In this document: positions 1,798 to 15,926 of the stretch, piece after piece
How positions within the stretch are numbered: position 1 is the first letter of the stretch
Layout: each line of letters opens with the position of its first letter
Assembly: GCA_005885405.1 (NCBI GenBank)
Contig: VAYN01000012.1
Coordinates: 138,553 to 202,552, forward strand
Direction of reading: 5' to 3'
Source: Actinomycetota bacterium
Lineage (GTDB): Bacteria > Actinomycetota > Thermoleophilia > Solirubrobacterales > 70-9
Length of the DNA: 64,000 bases
Made by a program: the position numbers and the translations under genes
The notes under the pieces: generated by a model
Told to the model about the DNA's origin: nothing
The model's database searches: none
Seen by the model: the letters and a program-made list of their open reading frames with translations, nothing else

Positions 1798-4600
1798 CTA
1801 GAGGGAGCAGTCGAGAACAAAGGCGCTCACTTCAGCGGTCCCGTCGGCGCTGACCGTTTCTGCCTGCTGTGCGAAAAAGTCTCGGCTGGCTTGGAAATCC
1901 CGGCGACGGCAGCGGCGGCAATTGACGCTATCGGATGCATCCCAGTCAGGAGAGTCGAAGTGGGCGACGACGTAGATCCCTTGTCGATGATCACCGTCGA
2001 GATAGCGATCGACCAGTTGCTCCTTCATGGCCTTATCCAGATCTCCGTGCCAGCAGCACTTCAACTCGATCACGACCCGTACGATCGGCGACCCCTCGAC
2101 ACGCTCGCCAGCCACCGCCTCGCAGACGATGTCGACCGATTCACCCATGTAGCCCGCGGGGTTTGCCTTGATCTCCAGCTCGCGGCCGACGAAGATCCCC
2201 TGGCCCGCGAGATCCTCCTTCAAGCGGTCCGCCAGCCACAGGGCGACCTGGCGCTCACGCTTCGGGCGCAGCGGCTTGGAATCCCAGAGGAGGGAGACCA
2301 CGCCCTCTTGGCCCTGGAGCTTCTCCTGGCACCGTTTGAGTCCGAAGATCAGGACCTCGCGAAGCTCGCGGTCTGAGCGGACATATCGCCGCCTGCCGTC
2401 CTCGGAGAGCATGAGGACATCGCGCGGCCGGGGCGGCTCCCACTCGGAGCGTTCGAAGATCTCCTCGGCGTCGTGCTGGTACCGCTTGATCCCGATCATC
2501 TTGGGAAACATCCCTGCCAGGCGGGCCAGCGTGTCTACCGCTTCTCGGGTCCCCTGGGCGGCGATCACGCCGATGATCCGCCACCGCCACGTTCCGATCT
2601 GCTCGCGGGGACTCGGGCCGTGTACGCCCTCTACTTGTGGATCCTCTGCGGACGGGAATTGCTCCTCGACCCATAGGTAGAGCTTGGCAGCGACCGCGGC
2701 CGGAAGGTTCGCCGCGATCTGCACCTCGCGCTCGGCGAGACGCAGCACGAGGTCGCGACCGAAGTCGACGTCGTCTTGCATCAACCTCCAGATCCGCTCC
2801 CACTCGGCCGCGCCTCGCTGCTCAAGGAGCACCATCGCCACCTTGACAGCGAGAGCCCGTCGACCGGGACCCCCGGCAAGAGCTCCGGGGACGACGAGTC
2901 GCCTGGCGTGTTCGAGCCCAGTGATCGATCCGTTCGCCACCAGGGTCCGCAGAAGTTCGGCGCGCCGATCCGGATCGCGCCGGGACCGCATAGCTCGCCG
3001 CAGGATCACCTCCTCGAGCTCGGGAGCCCATACGCGTTCGACCAACTTCAACGAGAAGAGGGTCCGCGCGGCTCGGAGGTCGCGGTCGAGGAGTTCGGCG
3101 AATCGATCCGCTCCCTCTTGTGGGGCCCTAGAGAAGAGGTGGTGCAACATCCAGTCGTTGAAGGTCGTCTCGTCGGAGCCGACAGTCGCGTCTCTGAACC
3201 AGCCGACGATCACGGCCCCCCAGCTCTCCCAGACGGAATCAGGTAACTGGGCGAATTGCACCTGATCGCGGTTGGCGAGCAGGCGAAGCGCTCGATAGCC
3301 AGCCCAAGCGGGCCAGAAGACCTTCTGCTGGCGTAGCCATCGCTCGGGTTCCGCGCCGCCCTCGCGCAGGTAGGACGGAGCGAAATCCAGAAGGCGCTGC
3401 CGGTCGACGTCGCCGATCAGAGACCAGCCGGTCAGCGCCGTGAGGTCGGAGATCAGGTACTCCCGGTGGCGGCGCTCATTGATCTCCATCCACTTGGTTG
3501 CGACCCAGAAGCCAGCACGATCGCCGCCTTCGAAGTCATCAAGCGCCGACTTGACCCGGCCGGGGATATTGAGGTCGGGTTCCGGTTCGTCGTCTTCCTC
3601 CACCGTCGCCTCGATGCGGACGACATGGAACTTCCGCATCTCCTCAGCGATCGGCGAATCGATCTCCACGGGCTCGAATCGCGGCCCGCTCAGCTGGTCG
3701 AGCACAGAGCTTTCGCCGAGCGCTTCCAGTATCGCCAGCTCGGACCCACCGAGGACAGGTAGACGGTCGATCAGTTCCGCCAGCGGGCGCTCAAGCTCCG
3801 TGCCGCGGGCGGCACGGAGCTGTTCGAGCAACCAGTCGACATCGTCTGCGGCCAGCAGCCTCGGAGCGGCGAAGAGGACGTTGACAAGCGTCAACTCTCC
3901 CGTGGCCATTAATGGAATTAGGCCCTCGACCAGGCTTCGTCGGCCAGCTTGCTCGACGAAGACCTCCGGGTGGTCGGTCAGCGTTGAGTGGGAGAGCAAA
4001 TTGACGTTCTCTCGTAGCAACGGCTCGAGTGCATCGAGAAACGCCTCGCGAATGTCCTCGTCGCTGACGATGGCTGGCCAGGCCATCACGAAGATCTCTT
4101 CGCGAAGCGTCGAAAGCTCGTCGGTCCCGAAGTGGGAGACGGGCACGCCTGACGCCCAGCGCAGCATGGGAGCTAGGTGGCCCGTCTCCAGGCCGTCGAC
4201 CAACTCGCTCGCCAGGAACATGCGGTAGCCCCCGATGAGATGCTCGCGCTTCGGCTCGGTCAGTGATGCGACAAGTTCTTCGACGCCGATCACGTCGGGC
4301 CAGAGGATCCTCAGTGCGGCCGCCTTCAGCTCGTCGTCCTCGTCCTCGTCGAGCGGCTCGGACGCGAGCGGTCGGACTCTCTCGAGCTGTGCCTCGTCGC
4401 CGAGGTCACCGAGCGCCGACGTGGCTGCCACACGGACCTGAAGGTCGGTTCTCGGATCGAGGGCGAGGTCGGTCAGGGAAGGGACCAGCCCGACCAGCCC
4501 GCATCCCGCCGCTAGATCGCAGGCGATTTGGCGTGCCCAAGGTGAATCGGTCTCGTCGGCGAGGATCGAGCCTGATCTCGCGCGCCCTCCATCAGCGCCT
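1798..4600 (-). pseudogene. C-terminal part of a large NACHT/STAND protein: HEAT-like helical repeats and terminal PD-(D/E)XK-like segment; separated from N-terminal part by a frameshift
   Basis: Called ORF 1798..4431 (877 aa); the frame stays open and protein-like upstream to ~4590 (GSILADETDSPWARQIACDLAAGCGLVGLVPSLTDLALDPRTDLQVRVAATSALGD). C-terminus contains ESVDIVCEAV...VVIELKCCW. Confidence 0.6.
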
Positions 4601-5897
4601 CTACCGCCCGTTCGCGCCCACCATTATCGAGCCCCCTCGGCTCGGAGCGCAGTAGGACCAGGGGGTCGCGATCGAGCAGCATCGCCTCGAATTCGGGGGA
4701 CAGTTCGGCGAGGGACACCGCGACCTCTCGCAGTTGGGGGACCACCCTGCCGGTTGCCGCACCGAAGAGGAGGTCATCGCGTTGGCGCGCGGATAGTCCA
4801 CCGTCAGCAATCCAACGCGCGGCGAGGAACTCGCTGTGGCTGGTCTGGGCGAACCGGCTCCGGCCAGCGCCCGCGCCGGCGAAGATCGCGGTGCCGAGCG
4901 CATCTTCCACTGCGGCCTCGTCGATGTCGAGGTTTCTTTCCACCCCAACGTGCCGGTCGATTTCGTGGCCGCCCGCGAGTTCGGCCAGCGTGGCTTCGTC
5001 GGGCCCGGGGGTGCCGGGTGCCGTCCGAATCACGCTCCGCCCGGAGAGCATCGTCGCCGCGGCGACCCTGGCGGAGACGGCCATACGGGAAGAAGGGGAT
5101 GTCTGCCCTATCCGCCGATCCTCGTCGGGCTCGCGGCACAGTAACTTGAGCCCCTGCTCGAAAGCATCCGATCTCCGGGTCGGGATGCTTCCGCTCTCAC
5201 GGTGGATCCCAACGAGGAACTTCAGCGATTCGGGGACCATTGCCAGTGACTGCAGCTCACTCGCGATGATTTCGCCGACGAAATTCTCAGGGTCGACTTC
5301 TTCTGCCTTGGCGGCCGCTTCCACGTCGGAGCGGGTGAGCGGCGCCAGCTCGCGCACTTCGAATCGCTCGCTTCCGAACCAGCCGCTCAACTCGTTCTCC
5401 AGCGTCTGGTGGCGATCGGCACTGCGGCAGCTGAGCCGGACGACGAGACGCTGATGAGGCGCGTCCTCGAGGCCGCGGATCAGGAGCTTCGCGGCCGTCT
5501 CCAGCCGCATCCGTGCCTCGTCGAGGGAATCGAGGTAAAGGTGGAGGCGGCCCTCGCCTGCCCGCCATTCCTCGAACTCTTCCGAGCCGAAGATCCTTTC
5601 CTCCAGCTCCGAGGCCACCCTGGTGAAGCCGAGTTCGACCAACAGAGCGTGGTCGCCCTCCCGCAGTGAGGCGTTGACCCGGCGATACTCGGCCTTGAGC
5701 TCGGTCGTCTTGCCGAGCCCGGGCTCGCCGATTAAGACGAGGCAGTCAATGTCTGCCAGCTCGGAGAGTCGTTTCGCGTCGGGCGTCGCCGCCGCGAGGA
5801 AATCGGATCGATCCGTCATGAACCCGGAATCGAGCATCGGGATTTCCTGTCCCTCCGGAAGCCAAAAGCGGTACGCGCGGAAGCCCCCTGCCTTCAC
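4512..5897 (-). CDS. N-terminal NACHT/STAND NTPase portion (frame lost near 4565-4600)
   Basis: 461 aa with Walker A LIGEPGLGKTTELKAEY, Walker B-like LHLYLDSLDEARM, and FAQTSHSEFLAARW typical of NACHT/AAA proteins. Confidence 0.7.
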   Translation of the reverse strand: MKAGGFRAYRFWLPEGQEIPMLDSGFMTDRSDFLAAATPDAKRLSELADIDCLVLIGEPGLGKTTELKAEYRRVNASLREGDHALLVELGFTRVASELEERIFGSEEFEEWRAGEGRLHLYLDSLDEARMRLETAAKLLIRGLEDAPHQRLVVRLSCRSADRHQTLENELSGWFGSERFEVRELAPLTRSDVEAAAKAEEVDPENFVGEIIASELQSLAMVPESLKFLVGIHRESGSIPTRRSDAFEQGLKLLCREPDEDRRIGQTSPSSRMAVSARVAAATMLSGRSVIRTAPGTPGPDEATLAELAGGHEIDRHVGVERNLDIDEAAVEDALGTAIFAGAGAGRSRFAQTSHSEFLAARWIADGGLSARQRDDLLFGAATGRVVPQLREVAVSLAELSPEFEAMLLDRDPLVLLRSEPRGLDNGGRERAVEALMEGARDQARSSPTRPIHLGHAKSPAI

Positions 5898-6027: not shown

Positions 6028-7059
6028 ATGCCCGACGATGGAGTTTCGCCCCTTGATGCACTGCTCCAAGTAGTGAGAAAGGTCTTCGAGCAGAGGGGGA
6101 AGTGGCCGACGCGACAATATGTGCAGGCGGTACTCGATCAGGATTTCTCCTTAGATCTAGATGATGCACTTCAGGCAGCACCGCGGGCCCTCGTCTATTC
6201 CACCGGCACCCAAGAAGGCTCTGATGTGATCCTTACGGTCGCGGGCCTAGCGGCAGCGGGTGATAGCGAAGACGTGCAGCGCTTCATTGAAGCGCTGCGG
6301 TGGTGTGTAGCCGAACAATTGGGCTTCCGACCGGCGGACCCCGGAGAGACGGAGCAACTTCGCTTAGAGGCCGAGCAATTCAGGAGCGAATGGGCTTCCC
6401 GAGGCCAGTCGGTGACGGCGACCGAGATGGACAAGCTGCGGGCGATGTTGACGACCGAGGGTATCTATAGCTCGATCGGCGGAGAAGGAGATAGTTGGAC
6501 TGTCACCCTGGATCGCCGAAGCGTCTACCCCTACCGCGACGTGCAAACGACTGAGGATTACCTGGCTGTGAAAGGGGCATCTACCGCCACGCCAGCCCCT
6601 CCTGTCCTAGAGCTAGAACTGCCGGGACGCGAGCTTCCAAGGGAGGTTTCATCTTTGCAACTGGGCCTCGACGAGCTTCCCGCCAAAGTGAGGGAAGCCT
6701 GCGCGATCCTTTTCCTCCACGGACACTTTGCGCAGGGTGTACTCGAGGCCGCCAAGGTGATGCGGGATGTCCTGCGCCAAGCAAGCGGCCTCGACCTCGA
6801 TGGTGATCGACTGGCTGGCAAGGCCCTCAACCCGGACAACCCTTTGATCGTCCTGGGGGACCTGGCTACCGAGACCGGTAGGAGTCGACAGCGCGGAGTG
6901 ATGTTGGTCGCCCAAGGGATCTTTGGGGCTGTGCGCAACCCACTTGCCCACCACCGCATAGTCCTTCGTCCGACGGAAGCCCGTCAGATGGTGGCGATGA
7001 TCGCGTTTGTCGTCGAGGCCGTGGAAGCCCGCCGAATGCAGCCAGCGTCAGCCGGCTAG
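6028..7059 (+). CDS. TIGR02391/Hypoth_Ymh-family C-terminal domain protein
   Basis: 343 aa; C-terminal pattern GHFAQGVLEAAKVMRDVLRQASGLDLDGDRLAGKALNPDNPLIVL...RQRGVMLVAQGIFGAVRNPLAHH matches the Ymh family motif. Confidence 0.75.
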   Translation: MPDDGVSPLDALLQVVRKVFEQRGKWPTRQYVQAVLDQDFSLDLDDALQAAPRALVYSTGTQEGSDVILTVAGLAAAGDSEDVQRFIEALRWCVAEQLGFRPADPGETEQLRLEAEQFRSEWASRGQSVTATEMDKLRAMLTTEGIYSSIGGEGDSWTVTLDRRSVYPYRDVQTTEDYLAVKGASTATPAPPVLELELPGRELPREVSSLQLGLDELPAKVREACAILFLHGHFAQGVLEAAKVMRDVLRQASGLDLDGDRLAGKALNPDNPLIVLGDLATETGRSRQRGVMLVAQGIFGAVRNPLAHHRIVLRPTEARQMVAMIAFVVEAVEARRMQPASAG

Positions 7060-7399
7060 GCCCCGCCGATATCGCAAAGAGAACAGTTGTCGCACCAGAA
7101 CTTGAATTGCGCCCCGCCAGGCTCTCGAGTTCGCATGGTCAGCTCGGATCAGCGACAGGGCTGTTCTAGGTGGCCGTTTGGTGTACCCACTGCAAAATCG
7201 AGGGAGGAGATCGGGGACCGTCCTGCTCTATTTTGCGAGCGGGCCTGCTCTATAGAGAGAGCAGAACCCATTTCTCCCAGCAAGCCGATTTATCGGACGA
7301 ACTGCTGGACGGGGACGAGGAGGTCAACAAGCTAGCTTGCTGAGCGCGTAGACGCGGAGCTCGCCAGACGCTCTAGGACCTACATCTTGAGGTTAGGCT

Positions 7400-7984
7400 T
7401 TGGCTGTGAGCTACCAGTGGGCTGAGTCCTTCGCCGACATCGACGGTATTTCTTGGGACCCGCTTGTCCCGATTGATCGTAGTTCGCTGCTCGGCATCGA
7501 TTCCCGACCAACGGTTGAGCGACTCGCGGGAAGCAGTCCTGCAAGCCAACACGAGCGTCACTTTGAAAGTGACTCGGATCTGGCCCCGAGGACGATCGCC
7601 AAGCGGGTGAGCGAGATGCTCACTCTTCCTGGTTCGCGGTCTGACTACCACTTCGGAATGCTCCAAGCATGGGAGGCTCTTTACGCAGCACGGCGTCGAG
7701 ACGGGCGCGTATTCGACTGGATCGAGTCCCTCTGTTTGGCCGACATCGAACTGATGGAGCAGGGCCCCGAGCTCGTGTTCGCCGAGGATCACTGGAACAA
7801 CCTGGATCAGGGCTATCCGATCTTCCCGGCTTTTCAGCGTCTCTCGAGCCTTTACCAGCGCGAGGGGTATCTGGCCGATGCGGTCGAGATAGAGAAACGA
7901 TGCGCGGCGCTTGGCGCCGCACGCCCCGTGGGGGAGGAGGCGATCGAGCGCCAGAAGGCCCTGCTCGAGGAGGATGGACGCTGA
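7400..7984 (+). CDS. Hypothetical protein, first gene of overlapping three-gene operon
   Basis: 194 aa, TTG (7400) or GTG (7406) start; 11-nt overlap with the downstream helicase start. Confidence 0.6.
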   Translation: MAVSYQWAESFADIDGISWDPLVPIDRSSLLGIDSRPTVERLAGSSPASQHERHFESDSDLAPRTIAKRVSEMLTLPGSRSDYHFGMLQAWEALYAARRRDGRVFDWIESLCLADIELMEQGPELVFAEDHWNNLDQGYPIFPAFQRLSSLYQREGYLADAVEIEKRCAALGAARPVGEEAIERQKALLEEDGR

Positions 7985-10049
7985 GCCTGCCCACCTCGCC
8001 CTTCGCTCGGAATCGTTCCTTGAGTCCTGCTTTCTACGGTGGGTGCTCGCGCCGGCGACCGATGCCAAGATTATCGATTACGTCACCCCGCAGGCAGAAA
8101 CTGAGATCGATGGACGTACCTACAAAGTCGATTACGAGATCGCGGGCGAGGCGCTGCGCCTCGCGGTCGAGCTCGATGGCTTCGCTTTTCACTCCGACCG
8201 ACAGCAGTTCACCTATGACCGTTTCCGCCAGAACGACCTTCAAGGAGCTGGCCTGGCGGTTGTCCGCTTCTCCTATGACGCAATCCGCTTCGAGACCTCC
8301 CGCTGCGTCGCGCAGCTGCAGCAGTTGCTTGACCACGATCCCCTGCTGGCCCGCTTCGTCGTCGCTGATCCCGTTGTCGAAGCGCCGACTGACATGGAGG
8401 CCGATCCGCTCTTCGCCATGGCTGGTGTCGCGAGGAGCGCGATGACTTCGCCTGAGACCTACTTCGATTCGGCACGTCAGAAGATCAATCGCCAGACGCT
8501 GCGCGAATGCCAAAGTGAGGCCTTCGAGGCACTTGCCAACTACTACGGCCGAGGCGGCACCAACGCTGCGACGGTGATGGCCGTCGGCGCCGGCAAGACC
8601 GCCTTGGGTGTCCTTGCCTGCCTCGGCTTCGCGCACAGCCGTGCGCTGGTCATCACCCCGGGGTCCGTGATCCGAGGGACCTTCGATACCGCGCTCGATC
8701 ATCGCGATCCGAACAACGTGCTCTATGGCCTCCCGGGCGGCGCGCTTATTCCAGGGTGTCCGCCACCCAAGGTCCGGGTGTTAGACCGCGATGACGGACC
8801 CATCCGCGACGTGACCCGGACTGAGCTGCTGGAGGCCGACATTATCGTGACCAACTTCCACTCCCTGGGAACTGGCGAGGATGAGGACGACCTCTTGGCC
8901 AAGCTCGCCCCCGACGACATCGACTTCGTCGTCGTGGATGAGGCCCATATCGCCGCGGCCGAGAGCTACCAGCGGACGTTTCGCCACTTCTCCACCGCGC
9001 GCAATCTGCTGATGTCAGCCTGCTTCCAGCGCCTCGACGGCAAACCGATCGAGGCCGATGTCGTCTACCGCTACCGACTGATCGACTCGATTGTCGACGG
9101 CAACGCAAAGCAGCTCCGGGTTCGCCGCTTCGCCTCTCAGCCGGAGGCGACGACCTACGAGATCGTCTGGCCCGACGGCCTGCGGGAAGAGATCGTCGGT
9201 CGCGACGCGCTGCTCGAGATCATGAGAGACGAGCGCAAGCTGGCTCGGGTGACGGCCAAGTCCACCGAGCCGATCCGCCAGGTGATGCGCTCGGTTCGGG
9301 AGGCTCTTGACCGGCAGGCCGAGCTCTTCAACCCGATCAAGCCGCGGGTCCTCTTTGCCGCCCTCGGACACCGGCACGCAGAGCAGATTGCGGCGATAGC
9401 CAACGAGCACGGCATTGCTTCGGGAGTCCTTCATCACTCGATGACCGAAGGACAGATCCGCGAGGTGCGGCGGCGCTTCGAGTCCGAGGCCGGCGATCTG
9501 CAGGGAATCGTCCAGCTGCGGATGCTGGGTCAGGGTTACGACTTCCCGCCGATCTGCGTCGTCGCCCCGATGCGCCCGTACGGCTCCTTCAGCGAGTTCT
9601 ACCAATTCGTCGGTCGCGGGATCCGCGTTATCCGTCACCCCGCACTCGAGGGGCGGGTTCCCCCGTCCGAGCAGTGGCTGGATGTCGTCTATCACGGCGA
9701 GCTTGGTCTCGACGCGCACATCGACACGATCTACGCCGAAAACGACATGGATCCCCTCACCGAGCACGAGTACCCCGACGACTGGGACCGCGAGGGCTCC
9801 GATGACGAAGGGCTGGCGCTCGGCGGTTCAACCGGGATCGACGTCGCCGGACGACCGATGGCTTTCGTCATGTTCGAGCGCGGCGACGTCGAACAACGGG
9901 TCGTCCACAACGAGGAGCACGTGCAGGCCCGCAAGGCCGAGCGCGAGCGCCAAGCCCTAGCGCGTAAGTACGCAGAGTACGCGCAGGGCACCGATACGCC
10001 AATCACCTTCGATCAGTACGTCGAGGTCATGCGGCAACTCGCGGGATGA
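7974..10049 (+). CDS. SF2 (DEAH-box) helicase with N-terminal DUF559/Vsr-like nuclease domain
   Basis: ORF track starts at 7911 but ATG 7974 (MDAEPAHLALRSES) is more likely. N-term YKVDYEIAGEALRLAVELDGFAFHSDRQQFTYDRFRQNDLQGAGLAVVRFSYD is Vsr/DUF559-like; motif I VGAGKTALGV, motif II VVDEAHIA, motif VI-like FYQFVGRGIRV. Confidence 0.8.
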   Translation: MDAEPAHLALRSESFLESCFLRWVLAPATDAKIIDYVTPQAETEIDGRTYKVDYEIAGEALRLAVELDGFAFHSDRQQFTYDRFRQNDLQGAGLAVVRFSYDAIRFETSRCVAQLQQLLDHDPLLARFVVADPVVEAPTDMEADPLFAMAGVARSAMTSPETYFDSARQKINRQTLRECQSEAFEALANYYGRGGTNAATVMAVGAGKTALGVLACLGFAHSRALVITPGSVIRGTFDTALDHRDPNNVLYGLPGGALIPGCPPPKVRVLDRDDGPIRDVTRTELLEADIIVTNFHSLGTGEDEDDLLAKLAPDDIDFVVVDEAHIAAAESYQRTFRHFSTARNLLMSACFQRLDGKPIEADVVYRYRLIDSIVDGNAKQLRVRRFASQPEATTYEIVWPDGLREEIVGRDALLEIMRDERKLARVTAKSTEPIRQVMRSVREALDRQAELFNPIKPRVLFAALGHRHAEQIAAIANEHGIASGVLHHSMTEGQIREVRRRFESEAGDLQGIVQLRMLGQGYDFPPICVVAPMRPYGSFSEFYQFVGRGIRVIRHPALEGRVPPSEQWLDVVYHGELGLDAHIDTIYAENDMDPLTEHEYPDDWDREGSDDEGLALGGSTGIDVAGRPMAFVMFERGDVEQRVVHNEEHVQARKAERERQALARKYAEYAQGTDTPITFDQYVEVMRQLAG

Positions 10050-12358
10050 GCTCGACGTCGCAAAGCTACGGAGCGCGCTTCGCGACCGCTGGTCCCAGCC
10101 AGCGGGCGGAGCTCCACCTTGCTGAGGGCAAGCGAGACGATTTCGCGGCCTATGACGCGGCCCTCGGAAGGCTTCTTGAGCGGGCGATCCGCGGTGAGGA
10201 GGTTTTAGACCTTCAGCTCGCGAAGCGCCGCACCCAGACCGATGTCGTGACGCTGAGAATCGACGAGGAGGAGCGGACGGTCCTGGCTGCGGTCCTCGCG
10301 CCAGAGGCCCAGCAGGCCCGCGGGGTCTGGTACCTGCCCGAGTCCCACAAAGCGCTCTTAGGCCTAGTCGAGTACGGACACTGGGCAGACGTCCAACCGC
10401 GGTTCTCGATCTCGGCCGCCGACGCGCAGCGCGCCTCCCTCGCCTTGGACACGGTTGACGCGATCGTCATCTGGGCCGTGCTCGAACCGGTCCTCGAGGC
10501 GCTTTACTTGCCGATCAAGCTGCGCTCGGGCTACTGGCTCGGCGATCGCCGCCCTGATCAGATGGAGAAGGACTGGGCGGCGGTGCAGCACACCTACTCG
10601 CTGCTCGGAGTGGCCCAAGGACCGCTGGAGCTGTTTGTGGACGGGCGTCGCTGGGCCGGACTCCAGATCGAGGAGGTAGTTGATGCCCGCCGACAGCTCA
10701 TGGACGCATGGCGAAATGCTCCGGAGGATGTCGGGGCACGGGCGATTGCGCTTCTAGTCGATCCTCTGGTCGAGCGCTATTACAAGAAAGCGAAGAACGG
10801 CCAAGCTGAGCGGACCAAGGTTCTCAACAAAGGCCTGGAGCGCTCATTGACGGCCGTATACGGAGGAGATTGGCTGGCTTTCCTCGATTACCTTGGGGAG
10901 CAGGCCCACCCCGCCGAGAAGATTTCGACTTCCGTCGAGTCGACCACGCTTGTCGTCTCCGGGGACCAGGAGCGACGCGAAAAGGCCGCGGCAGCCACCG
11001 GGGTTCCCGTCGAGGAGATCGACGCGATCCTTTCTGCCTACTGGGGCGACGCCGAGGGTTCTCCGGTCGAACAGCGTGCCGATGTGATGCGGCGCTGGTG
11101 GCGAGAGTTCGACGAGGTGCATGCCGCTCAGTCGCAAGAAGATCCTTCGCGATGGGGGTTGATTGGTGATCGGTTCGAGGACGCGATGCAGAGCGTCGAG
11201 GACGGCCGGTTCACGCCCCAGGCGTATCGGCAGTTGTCGGCGCCTCTCAACGAACAGATCGAGCAGTTGTGGGGCACCGCCGTTCTCCCACGCTGGCCGG
11301 AGGTCTTGGTCAGTGAGCCGTTCCCACACGCCGCATTCGCTGAAGCCTTCGGGCCTGGGGCATCTCTATGGCATGAGATCGCACTGACCTGTTGGTTCAT
11401 CTGCGAGGGCCCCTACAGCCGGACCAGCGTAGGCGGAATGCCTAACTACTACGAAGAGCAGATCAAGGCGTTGGAGGAGCTGGGGTGCCCGATCGACTTC
11501 GACATGTTCGGCGAGTTGCGGGATGCCGAGGCAAAGTTGACCGACCGGCCTCCAGATCCCGGCGACACTCACGAGACCGATTTGGGCGACGGCTTGACGA
11601 TTTCGGTGACGATGACCGTAGGGCCGGGAAAAAAAGATGGCTTCGAGCGGCTTCGGAATGTGGTGACGCGATATCGCCGAGCCTGGGCCGAGCGCCATCT
11701 GGAGAGCTATCTCCAGGCCCGATGGGGACAGGACCTGCGCGGCACCGGCGATAGTTATCACCGTCACGTCGCCGACAAGGGCCGTCCACCGACGAGGAAG
11801 CAGTTCGCGAAGCTCGCGGCCCATGGAGCAAACCTCTGGTTCGGCGGAGATCTCGCTGCTCTTTCGAGCGCCCTCAGAATTCCTGCTCCGGATCCGCAAG
11901 AGCGTCGCCGGCTACTGCCGCACGATCGGGCAGCCTTTGTTGAGGAGGTCAGGAAGACGCTCGGGGGACAACGCTGGGCTCAGTCCGCCAATGACCTGGA
12001 TCGCAAAGAGCGGGAGCGACTGATGCGTCTGTCGGACCTCGCCGAGCGATCACCGGGCGTCGTTCAGATGTGGGAGGCAATGGGTGAGCCTCCTCCGCTC
12101 AAAGGGAACGGCTGGGCTCGCTATCGCCTCGAAGCAGCGTTCGGTTCCGATCTGGAAGCTGGCTGGGCAACCTACATCCAGGCGATCGGCACCGTGCTCG
12201 ATGGCTCCCGGCCCACCTCATCGCCATCTGTTGATCCCGAGCATGCCCAACCGCCAAATATTGCTGCCAACGGCATCACGAACCCGACCATCGAGACGGA
12301 CGAAAAGAGCGCGCAAGAGGGCGGTGTCCGTGGATTTCTCAACCGCCTTCGTCGCTGA
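10046..12358 (+). CDS. 770-aa protein of unknown family, last gene of the helicase operon
   Basis: ATG overlaps helicase stop (ATGA at 10046-10049). No family recognised by reading. Confidence 0.75.
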   Translation: MSSTSQSYGARFATAGPSQRAELHLAEGKRDDFAAYDAALGRLLERAIRGEEVLDLQLAKRRTQTDVVTLRIDEEERTVLAAVLAPEAQQARGVWYLPESHKALLGLVEYGHWADVQPRFSISAADAQRASLALDTVDAIVIWAVLEPVLEALYLPIKLRSGYWLGDRRPDQMEKDWAAVQHTYSLLGVAQGPLELFVDGRRWAGLQIEEVVDARRQLMDAWRNAPEDVGARAIALLVDPLVERYYKKAKNGQAERTKVLNKGLERSLTAVYGGDWLAFLDYLGEQAHPAEKISTSVESTTLVVSGDQERREKAAAATGVPVEEIDAILSAYWGDAEGSPVEQRADVMRRWWREFDEVHAAQSQEDPSRWGLIGDRFEDAMQSVEDGRFTPQAYRQLSAPLNEQIEQLWGTAVLPRWPEVLVSEPFPHAAFAEAFGPGASLWHEIALTCWFICEGPYSRTSVGGMPNYYEEQIKALEELGCPIDFDMFGELRDAEAKLTDRPPDPGDTHETDLGDGLTISVTMTVGPGKKDGFERLRNVVTRYRRAWAERHLESYLQARWGQDLRGTGDSYHRHVADKGRPPTRKQFAKLAAHGANLWFGGDLAALSSALRIPAPDPQERRRLLPHDRAAFVEEVRKTLGGQRWAQSANDLDRKERERLMRLSDLAERSPGVVQMWEAMGEPPPLKGNGWARYRLEAAFGSDLEAGWATYIQAIGTVLDGSRPTSSPSVDPEHAQPPNIAANGITNPTIETDEKSAQEGGVRGFLNRLRR

Positions 12359-14267: not shown

Positions 14268-15926
14268 ATGGCGGCTAAGGCAAAAGGCGAAGTGATCGAA
14301 ACCCCGCTAAAGGGCGGAGCCAGTTTCGCGCTGAGGCTCTCGGCATACGGCGAACGGCCCTATGTCACCCTCGGGTTCGATCACGAAGGCTGGACCCCGG
14401 AGGCGGCGGAGGAGAAGCTGAAGGATGTACTGGCGGAAGTTCGGCTCGGTATGTGGGTGCCGCCGAAGAAGAAGCGGCGTCGGCAGGCCGAGGTAGATGC
14501 GCCGGGTGGACCTGACGAGTTCCCCTATTTCGGACCGTTCGCCATCGACCTGATCGAGGCGCGGGAAGGACAAGTCAGCGAGAACACCACCGCTCACGAG
14601 AAATGGTCTCTCAGTCACCTGCTGCCGTTCTTCGGGGATTGGCCACTCCCCGATATCGACGCCGAAGCGATAGACGACTACCGCGCTTTCAAGGTCAAGG
14701 AGTCGGCCGCCCGGGCGCGCGCCATCGAGCGCGGCCAGCCCCAGCGGAACGAGCACAATCAAGTCCTCAAACCGCTGTCGGCGCGGTCGATCAACAAGAC
14801 GATTGACGCCCTTCAATTCATTCTGGCCGTTGCCCTAGAGCGAAAGCGCGTAACCGGCGTCACCGAGAACGCCGCGGTTGGGAAAAAACGGCGCCTGAAG
14901 CCCCCGCCGAAACGGCCGGTGCACCTCGACTCGGCGGGACAGATCGAGGCGCTGCTGGAGGCGGCTGCTGAGATGGACCGCGACCCTCGCTGGCGCGGGA
15001 CCCAGAGGCAGGCGGTCCTCGCGACCCTGATCTTCGCTGGCCCCCGCGCCCATGAGTTGTGCAACTTGCTCTGGCGCGACGTTGATCTCGCCAGCAGCAT
15101 CATCTTCGTTGGCCGCTCGAAGACGCAGGCGGGGCTCCGCGAGATCAGGATGCTGCCGATCCTGCGGGACATATTGGCCGCCCACAAAGCGGCCACCTAT
15201 CAAGGCAACCCTGACGATCACGTCTTCCTCAATATCGCGGGCGGGGTCTTGAACAAGGACACCCTCCGCACCGGGATTCTGGAGTCAGCGTTTGAGCAGG
15301 GCGACGAGTTGCTCAGGTCCCGCGGGCAGGTTCCCCTTCCTGTCGGCCTCACGGCGCACAAGCTGCGACACACCTTCGCCTCGGTGCTGGTCGCGATTGG
15401 GGAGGACCCGGTCTCGGTGATGCGGCAACTCGGCCACAAGGATGCGGCCTTCACGCTGGAGGTCTACACGCATCTAATGAACCGGAACCCCGAAGAGCGG
15501 AACCGGCTAAAAGCCTTGGTCCGGGGAGAGCGGGTTGCCGCGCAGCTCGCGCCCATGCCAGCGCAGCTCGATTCGACCGACTACGAGCTGCCGATCCTGC
15601 GGGCGCTGGTCAACAACGGCGGCGGTGGATCAGCCCGCGAGATCATCGCGGCGGTGGGCCGCAGAATGGCCCCGTTGCACACGGCGCGCGATACGGAGGC
15701 GCTTCCCAGCGGGGCGCCCCGCTGGGAAGCCCGCACCCGTAAGGCCCGAGCGCGACTCGTGGAGCGGGGTTGGGTCAAATCGAAATCGCCCCGCGGCCAG
15801 TGGGAGGTCACGAAGATCGGCCGCGCCAAACTACGGCGCGACGATCAGAAGGAGAACCGGGGGCGCCGGCTCCGCCCGATTACCTCGGCGGCGAATGCCG
15901 AGCCGGAGATGGCGGTGGCGGCATGA
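14268..15926 (+). CDS. Tyrosine recombinase/integrase with C-terminal Mrr_N-like winged helix
   Basis: 552 aa; catalytic pattern GPRAHELCNLLWRDVD, LTAHKLRHTFASVLVAIGEDPVSVMRQLGHKDAAFTLEVYTHL; C-terminus DYELPILRALVNNGGG...PRWEARTRKARARLVERGWVKSKSPRGQWEVT. Confidence 0.9.
   Translation: MAAKAKGEVIETPLKGGASFALRLSAYGERPYVTLGFDHEGWTPEAAEEKLKDVLAEVRLGMWVPPKKKRRRQAEVDAPGGPDEFPYFGPFAIDLIEAREGQVSENTTAHEKWSLSHLLPFFGDWPLPDIDAEAIDDYRAFKVKESAARARAIERGQPQRNEHNQVLKPLSARSINKTIDALQFILAVALERKRVTGVTENAAVGKKRRLKPPPKRPVHLDSAGQIEALLEAAAEMDRDPRWRGTQRQAVLATLIFAGPRAHELCNLLWRDVDLASSIIFVGRSKTQAGLREIRMLPILRDILAAHKAATYQGNPDDHVFLNIAGGVLNKDTLRTGILESAFEQGDELLRSRGQVPLPVGLTAHKLRHTFASVLVAIGEDPVSVMRQLGHKDAAFTLEVYTHLMNRNPEERNRLKALVRGERVAAQLAPMPAQLDSTDYELPILRALVNNGGGGSAREIIAAVGRRMAPLHTARDTEALPSGAPRWEARTRKARARLVERGWVKSKSPRGQWEVTKIGRAKLRRDDQKENRGRRLRPITSAANAEPEMAVAA

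What the first reader, a model, noticed from the sequence alone, without database searches (positions are those of the whole stretch)
7400..12358. Candidate undescribed three-gene nuclease-helicase system
Seen: three genes locked together by overlaps (11 nt at 7974-7984; ATGA at 10046-10049): a 194-aa protein, an SF2 DEAH helicase with a Vsr/DUF559-like nuclease N-terminus, and a 770-aa protein I cannot place in any family. Knowledge: nuclease/helicase fusions with large uncharacterised partners are typical of anti-phage systems. Inference: the neighbourhood (two STAND/nuclease proteins, a Ymh protein, an adjacent integrative element) makes this a plausible new defence operon.
Basis: partly seen in the sequence, partly recalled or inferred. 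Interest (0 to 1): 0.85.

Follow-up and report, generated by a model that had tools for sequence, protein, structure and literature searches.

The report
Unnamed nuclease-helicase defence operon
Three overlapping genes here form a conserved unit that jumps between bacterial phyla and sits among known anti-phage genes; it pairs a DNA-cutting motor protein with two proteins unlike anything described, so it is probably a new bacterial immune system.

Summary
In detail: three co-directional overlapping genes at 7400-12358, called A (194 aa), B (691 aa; Vsr-like nuclease plus SF2 helicase) and C (770 aa).
The same A-B-C order was found at 22 further loci: Streptomyces chromosomes and plasmids, Paractinoplanes, Rhodococcus and a same-genus MAG. 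Partial B-C loci occur in Myxococcota and Thermomicrobiota.
In 298 Streptomyces genomes, B occurs in five. All five carry C directly next to it, and B never occurs without C.
No A, B or C match reached a curated cut-off for a named system in PADLOC 2.0.0 or NCBIfam June 2026. C has no detectable domain except a Streptomyces-only TerD tail. Its confident AlphaFold model has no PDB or viral fold match. A is helical and TPR-like.
Genes flanking the operon match 85 PADLOC families (Wadjet, Druantia, Lamassu, Mokosh, pPIWI, RM), against 8 generic ones in control chromosome-arm regions.
Four B-less A-C loci exist: two are clean two-gene operons, one keeps a stump of deleted B. A-C looks like the core and B the detachable motor-nuclease.
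Best reading: an undescribed anti-invader system in which C/A recognise the trigger and B translocates and cuts DNA. Protection is untested.

The parts
7400..7984 (+). gene A: 194 aa, helical, TPR-like predicted adaptor; start TTG 7400 or GTG 7406
   Evidence: ORF; 23-member family; AlphaFold pLDDT 82.5, pTM 0.80, all alpha; only sub-significant TPR matches; single copy in 16 of 17 operon-bearing genomes searched, absent from the 17th
7974..10049 (+). gene B: 691 aa nuclease-helicase fusion
   Evidence: ATG 7974 overlaps A by 11 nt; Pfam domains; 57-64% identical to full-length B in other A-B-C loci, 73% to the partial Thermomicrobiales B
8097..8324 (+). Vsr-like REase domain of B (MTES_1575/DUF559); conserved D53 and E66-x-D68 at about 8130 and 8169-8177
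   Evidence: Pfam E 4.2e-8 and 5.5e-6; residue conservation
8496..9029 (+). ResIII/DEAH helicase domain 1 of B (GAGKT at 8586, DEAH at 8937)
   Evidence: Pfam 1.7e-12; motif positions
9342..9629 (+). Helicase_C domain 2 of B (QFVGRGIR at 9603)
   Evidence: Pfam 4.5e-6; motif position
10046..12358 (+). gene C: 770 aa orphan protein, predicted sensor/recognition subunit
   Evidence: ATGA overlap with B; 28-member family; AlphaFold pLDDT 81.9, pTM 0.75; no reliable PDB or viral fold match (best E 0.67 and 0.20)
11780..12205 (+). two GxPP(T)-type repeats near the C-terminus of C, resembling homing-endonuclease-associated (DNA-binding) repeats; weak
   Evidence: PF18780 in 6 of 28 members, best E 0.0063; repeat positions

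Best explanation
A mobile three-gene anti-invader (anti-phage or anti-plasmid) system. C, helped by the TPR-like adaptor A, recognises a feature of invading DNA or of infection. It loads or licenses B, an ATP-driven SF2 translocase whose N-terminal Vsr-like nuclease cuts the DNA, in the manner of Type I HsdR or SauUSI enzymes but with recognition placed on a separate, fast-evolving orphan protein. Shown: gene linkage, domain make-up of B, defence-island setting, horizontal spread and separability of B. Inferred: protection, the C-A-B complex, DNA as the target, and C as the sensor.
For: Conserved A-B-C operon in the window plus 22 loci. B and C occur in the same 5 of 298 Streptomyces genomes, always adjacent (C also as a fragment in a sixth); with independence, about 3e-10. 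Patchy, cross-phylum distribution: 3 of 399 genomes in the window's own phylum, Streptomyces about 2%, Myxococcota 1 of 242; the closest B is in Thermomicrobiota (73%) while the same-genus B is 63%. Flanks match Wadjet, Druantia, Lamassu, Mokosh, pPIWI and RM models: 85 families against 8 in control. B's helicase is nearest to SauUSI-like helicase (7clg), Type I R subunit and RadD. The nuclease has conserved D and ExD residues. No methyltransferase was seen among the genes examined next to the operon. In the distant pairs compared, A and C are about 30-40% identical where B is about 57-65%, as expected of a variable recognition side and a conserved motor.
Against: No phenotype. C has no identified recognition or catalytic domain, and its DNA-binding-repeat match is weak. 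B is absent in four lineages, so A-C must be able to persist without this nuclease-helicase, which a simple restriction enzyme would not predict. In Nannocystis the nuclease N-terminus of B is replaced, A was not found, and C is frameshifted. Fast evolution of A and C could be relaxed constraint.
Confidence: 0.55

Rival explanations
1. Abortive-infection version of the same operon: A-C sense infection and B, once released, degrades host and phage DNA, killing the cell.
For: No methyltransferase was seen next to the operon to protect self DNA (and the gene lists); a TPR-like adaptor and a large sensor-like protein resemble regulated suicide systems; the Nannocystis B carries a possible effector-associated-type N-terminus (EAD7 E 0.052, sub-threshold).
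Against: B has a translocase-type helicase like restriction motors; no toxin-antitoxin-like pairing seen.
Confidence: 0.2
2. A DNA-maintenance or repair module of linear replicons (end processing or recombination) rather than immunity.
For: B resembles RadD; mirror copies lie near both ends of two Streptomyces chromosomes, which fits terminal inverted repeats (G633 and G655), and it is on Streptomyces plasmids; one lineage has A-C next to a Mre11/Rad50-like pair.
Against: Present in about 2% of Streptomyces and in groups not known for linear replicons such as Solirubrobacterales and Nannocystis; too patchy for maintenance; surrounded by defence genes.
Confidence: 0.1
3. An inter-element competition module (anti-plasmid or anti-conjugation) of integrative elements and plasmids.
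For: An integrase gene is adjacent in the window (14268-15926) and probably in L023 (by eye); four plasmid records encode it.
Against: None directly; no match in phage records or viral contigs. The evidence does not separate it from anti-phage function.
Confidence: 0.15

Closest known systems
SauUSI (Type IV modification-dependent restriction enzyme; PLD nuclease + SF2 helicase-like ATPase + target recognition domain, PMC7913695)
   Same: Nuclease fused N-terminal to an SF2 helicase of the same broad group; B's profile finds 7clg (a 953-aa 'putative helicase' whose entry code is cited in the SauUSI paper) at 1.1e-11; no partner methyltransferase seen.
   Different: Different nuclease (Vsr-like, not PLD); recognition domain absent from the chain; two extra subunits A and C without known relatives.
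Type I restriction R subunit (HsdR/EcoAI)
   Same: PD-(D/E)XK-type nuclease followed by ResIII helicase in one chain.
   Different: No HsdM or HsdS seen next to the operon; B hits EcoAI at 32.5 bits against a cut-off of 550; the nuclease is of Vsr/DUF559 type.
Hhe/ProA and other helicases with an MTES_1575 nuclease
   Same: Helicase with an MTES_1575 Vsr-like nuclease in one chain, in a defence setting.
   Different: Those carry an SF1-type AAA_11/AAA_12 helicase with the nuclease C-terminal; B is SF2 with the nuclease N-terminal. An Hhe/ProA-like gene is only a neighbour in L050.
Ter-related and EAD/VMAP conflict systems (PMC7159879; PMC3710099)
   Same: TerD domain on C in the Streptomyces clade; helicases of a related Type I-like group occur as effectors there; possible EAD-like swap in Nannocystis.
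   Different: No vWA, MoxR or VMAP component identified; TerD absent from the window and deeper branches.

Membership tests
Type IV restriction (SauUSI-like) | nuclease + SF2 helicase in one chain | tested here: met
   Pfam domains of B, 7clg match
Type IV restriction (SauUSI-like) | PLD-type nuclease | tested here: not met
   MTES_1575/DUF559 fold instead
Type IV restriction (SauUSI-like) | modified-base recognition domain in the same chain | tested here: not met
   no Pfam domain above cut-off after Helicase_C in B
Type IV restriction (SauUSI-like) | cleavage depends on DNA modification | not testable with these tools
   needs biochemistry
Type I restriction-modification | HsdM and HsdS partners | tested here: not met
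   A and C match no MTase or specificity family; one Type I RE-MTase hit appears among all flanks scanned, not as a partner
Named systems in PADLOC 2.0.0 | A, B and C match models of one system | tested here: not met
   A 0 hits, C family 0 hits in 28 members; B only weak helicase hits (best 2.5e-10) to unrelated systems
Named antiphage families in NCBIfam June 2026 | score above curated cut-off | tested here: not met
Systems in DefenseFinder or recent preprints | listed there | not tested
   DefenseFinder and bioRxiv not held; 9 searches of PMC open papers found no description
Anti-phage defence system in general | defence-island setting and horizontal spread | tested here: met
Anti-phage defence system in general | protection phenotype | not testable with these tools
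   needs phage challenge

The most novel reading that the evidence does not exclude
A and C are the core of a new immune sensor module: C is a large protein of a fold not represented among solved structures, and A-C can work with interchangeable DNA-processing machines (Vsr-helicase B in most, an altered-N-terminus helicase in Nannocystis, a Mre11/Rad50-like pair in one actinomycetote) or with host nucleases alone.
Probability: 0.3. Interest if true: 0.85.

Novelty: new variant of a known kind. Interest (0 to 1): 0.68.

Why it matters
It adds a probable immune system with two protein families that have no name, no detectable domain and, for C, no structural counterpart found in the PDB. The clean A-C operons without the nuclease-helicase make it possible to ask which part senses and which part kills. 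It occurs in culturable Streptomyces species, so it can be tested directly with existing phages.

Tried and rejected
Single-sequence scan of genome contigs with C found nothing; a four-row alignment found 27 loci. Chance ORFs rejected. Phage-borne origin: no match in phage records or viral contigs. Fold searches for A (TPR-like, best E 0.72) and C (best E 0.67 in PDB, 0.20 in BFVD) gave no reliable match. The ToxA_N (E 0.51) and 2yln (E 0.4) hits to C were rejected as noise. B hidden elsewhere in the B-less genomes rejected: no strong B hit (best 1.5e-7) in the genomes of L023, L026, L030 and L049. TerD as the defining feature rejected: it is an add-on of the Streptomyces clade. An EAD-like N-terminus of Nannocystis B is only suggestive (EAD7 E 0.052). 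The search for HyoA/EruA papers gave only unrelated meanings.

Full report
OBSERVATION. Three co-directional genes at 7400-7984 (A), 7974-10049 (B) and 10046-12358 (C) are present as described, with overlaps of 11 and 4 nt. Coding-type base composition and shuffling exclude chance ORFs. B holds a Vsr-like REase (MTES_1575 4.2e-8, DUF559 5.5e-6) followed by ResIII (1.7e-12) and Helicase_C. A and C have no significant match in Pfam, NCBIfam, PADLOC or PHROGs.

CONSERVATION. tblastn with C found four Streptomyces plasmids, and a four-row profile found 27 loci in 85,488 species genomes. Scoring every ORF of these loci with profiles of A, B and C shows A-B-C in the same order and orientation in the window and 22 further loci: 17 Streptomyces loci from genomes, two Streptomyces plasmids, Paractinoplanes, Rhodococcus and a same-genus MAG (SZAS-9). 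Short overlaps recur: in Streptomyces mostly 4 nt for A/B and 11 nt for B/C. A is single copy in 16 of 17 operon-bearing genomes searched and absent from the 17th, Nannocystis. In an even sample of 298 Streptomyces genomes, B occurs in five and C in the same five (plus one C fragment), always adjacent, and B never alone; if independent, the chance is about 3e-10 (my calculation). Two of these genomes carry mirror-image copies near both ends, which fits location in terminal inverted repeats (inference).

DISTRIBUTION. Matches are rare and scattered: 3 of 101 relatives, 3 of 399 genomes of the phylum, 6 of 298 Streptomyces, 1 of 242 in the Nannocystis phylum, plus a Thermomicrobiales contig. The same-genus C is 33% identical, no closer than Streptomyces C (34-36%); the B most identical to the window's (73%) is the partial one from Thermomicrobiales. 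The simplest reading is horizontal transfer. No copy was found in phage records or viral contigs.

NEIGHBOURHOOD. 112 non-redundant flanking proteins match 85 PADLOC families at 1e-10, including JetC/JetD, DruE, LmuA, MkoC, pPIWI and restriction enzymes. 110 proteins from twelve chromosome-arm regions of three of the same Streptomyces genomes match only 8, mostly generic types such as WYL or subtilase. Family counts are not protein counts, since one protein can match several models, but the kinds named differ plainly. In SZAS-9 the operon starts about 15 nt after an Hhe/ProA-like helicase gene. In the window its neighbours are a NACHT protein related to HyoA/EruA (frameshifted), a Ymh HEPN protein and an integrase fused to an Mrr N-terminal domain.

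MODULARITY. Four lineages have A-C without B, and their genomes hold no strong B hit. The tree of C needs four separate changes of this state. Sphaerisporangium keeps about 30 codons of B between A and C, a deletion relic. Blastococcus and a Solirubrobacterales MAG have clean ATGA A-C overlaps, which look functional. In G434, A-C is followed by Mre11/Rad50-like genes on the same strand, with gaps, so a functional link is unproven. Nannocystis has B and C, but B lacks the Vsr domain, A was not found and C is frameshifted.

THE PROTEINS. A: AlphaFold pLDDT 82.5, pTM 0.80, all helical; TPR-like hits are below significance. C: pLDDT 81.9, pTM 0.75, mostly helical with small strands; the best PDB hit has E 0.67 and TM about 0.1, so no known counterpart. 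15 of 28 C proteins, in the Streptomyces clade, carry a C-terminal TerD domain. GxPP(T) repeats near the end resemble homing-endonuclease-associated DNA-binding repeats, weakly. In the distant pairs compared, A and C share about 30-40% identity where B shares about 57-65%.

MECHANISM. Shown: linkage, B's domains, setting, patchy spread, separability. Inferred from the families: B is an ATP-dependent DNA translocase with a nuclease head, like Type I R subunits and SauUSI (PMC7913695 shows SauUSI translocates and shreds DNA). No methyltransferase was seen among the neighbours examined, so self/non-self discrimination would lie in what C recognises. I propose C senses, A bridges, and B cuts. The suicide and anti-plasmid readings remain open.

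KNOWN OR NEW. No named system matches A, B or C in PADLOC 2.0.0 or NCBIfam June 2026, and nine full-text searches found no description. DefenseFinder and bioRxiv were not available, so a very recent naming cannot be excluded. The motor-nuclease is a known kind; its partners are not. Hence 'new variant of a known kind'.

Noticed in passing
window 1798-5897 (-): Two adjacent ORFs (461 and 877 aa) in different frames match successive parts of the antiphage NACHT proteins HyoA/EruA (NF058534 4.5e-35, NF058535 1.1e-33 and 9.3e-16); probably one gene with a frameshift near 4500 (natural or assembly).
   Followed up: partly
window 14268-15926 (+): Tyrosine integrase fused at its C-terminus to an Mrr_N domain (Pfam 3.5e-10), next to the defence genes.
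   Followed up: no
window 6028-7059 (+): Ymh HEPN protein whose Ymh region also matches PD-Lambda-3_B (1.7e-17); its first 200 residues are unassigned.
   Followed up: no
C proteins of window, L018, L022, L023, L024: C proteins without TerD often end in a disordered linker plus a short basic amphipathic tail (GFLNRLRR, GLLDRLLGR, GLFRRLLGR, GFLGRLFSR, GLVGRLFRSLR); possible partner or membrane anchor, in the place where Streptomyces has TerD.
   Followed up: partly
L026 3534-3680: Stump of a deleted B gene (VSSTTRLVDLIRGESFLENAFIKWVL) between A and C in Sphaerisporangium.
   Followed up: yes
L049 3886-7786 (-): Mre11-like phosphoesterase and Rad50-like ATPase genes downstream of A-C where B is absent.
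   Followed up: partly
L013, L025, L028, L029, L010, L007: A recurrent large protein (up to 1796 aa, AAA/NACHT-type), in four of them with a 394-aa partner family, repeatedly lies near the operon in Streptomyces; no named family beyond the ATPase domain.
   Followed up: partly
window 7215-7270: Upstream of A: repeated CTGCTCTAT and a near-palindrome CTGCTCTATAGAGAGAGCAG, a possible operator.
   Followed up: no
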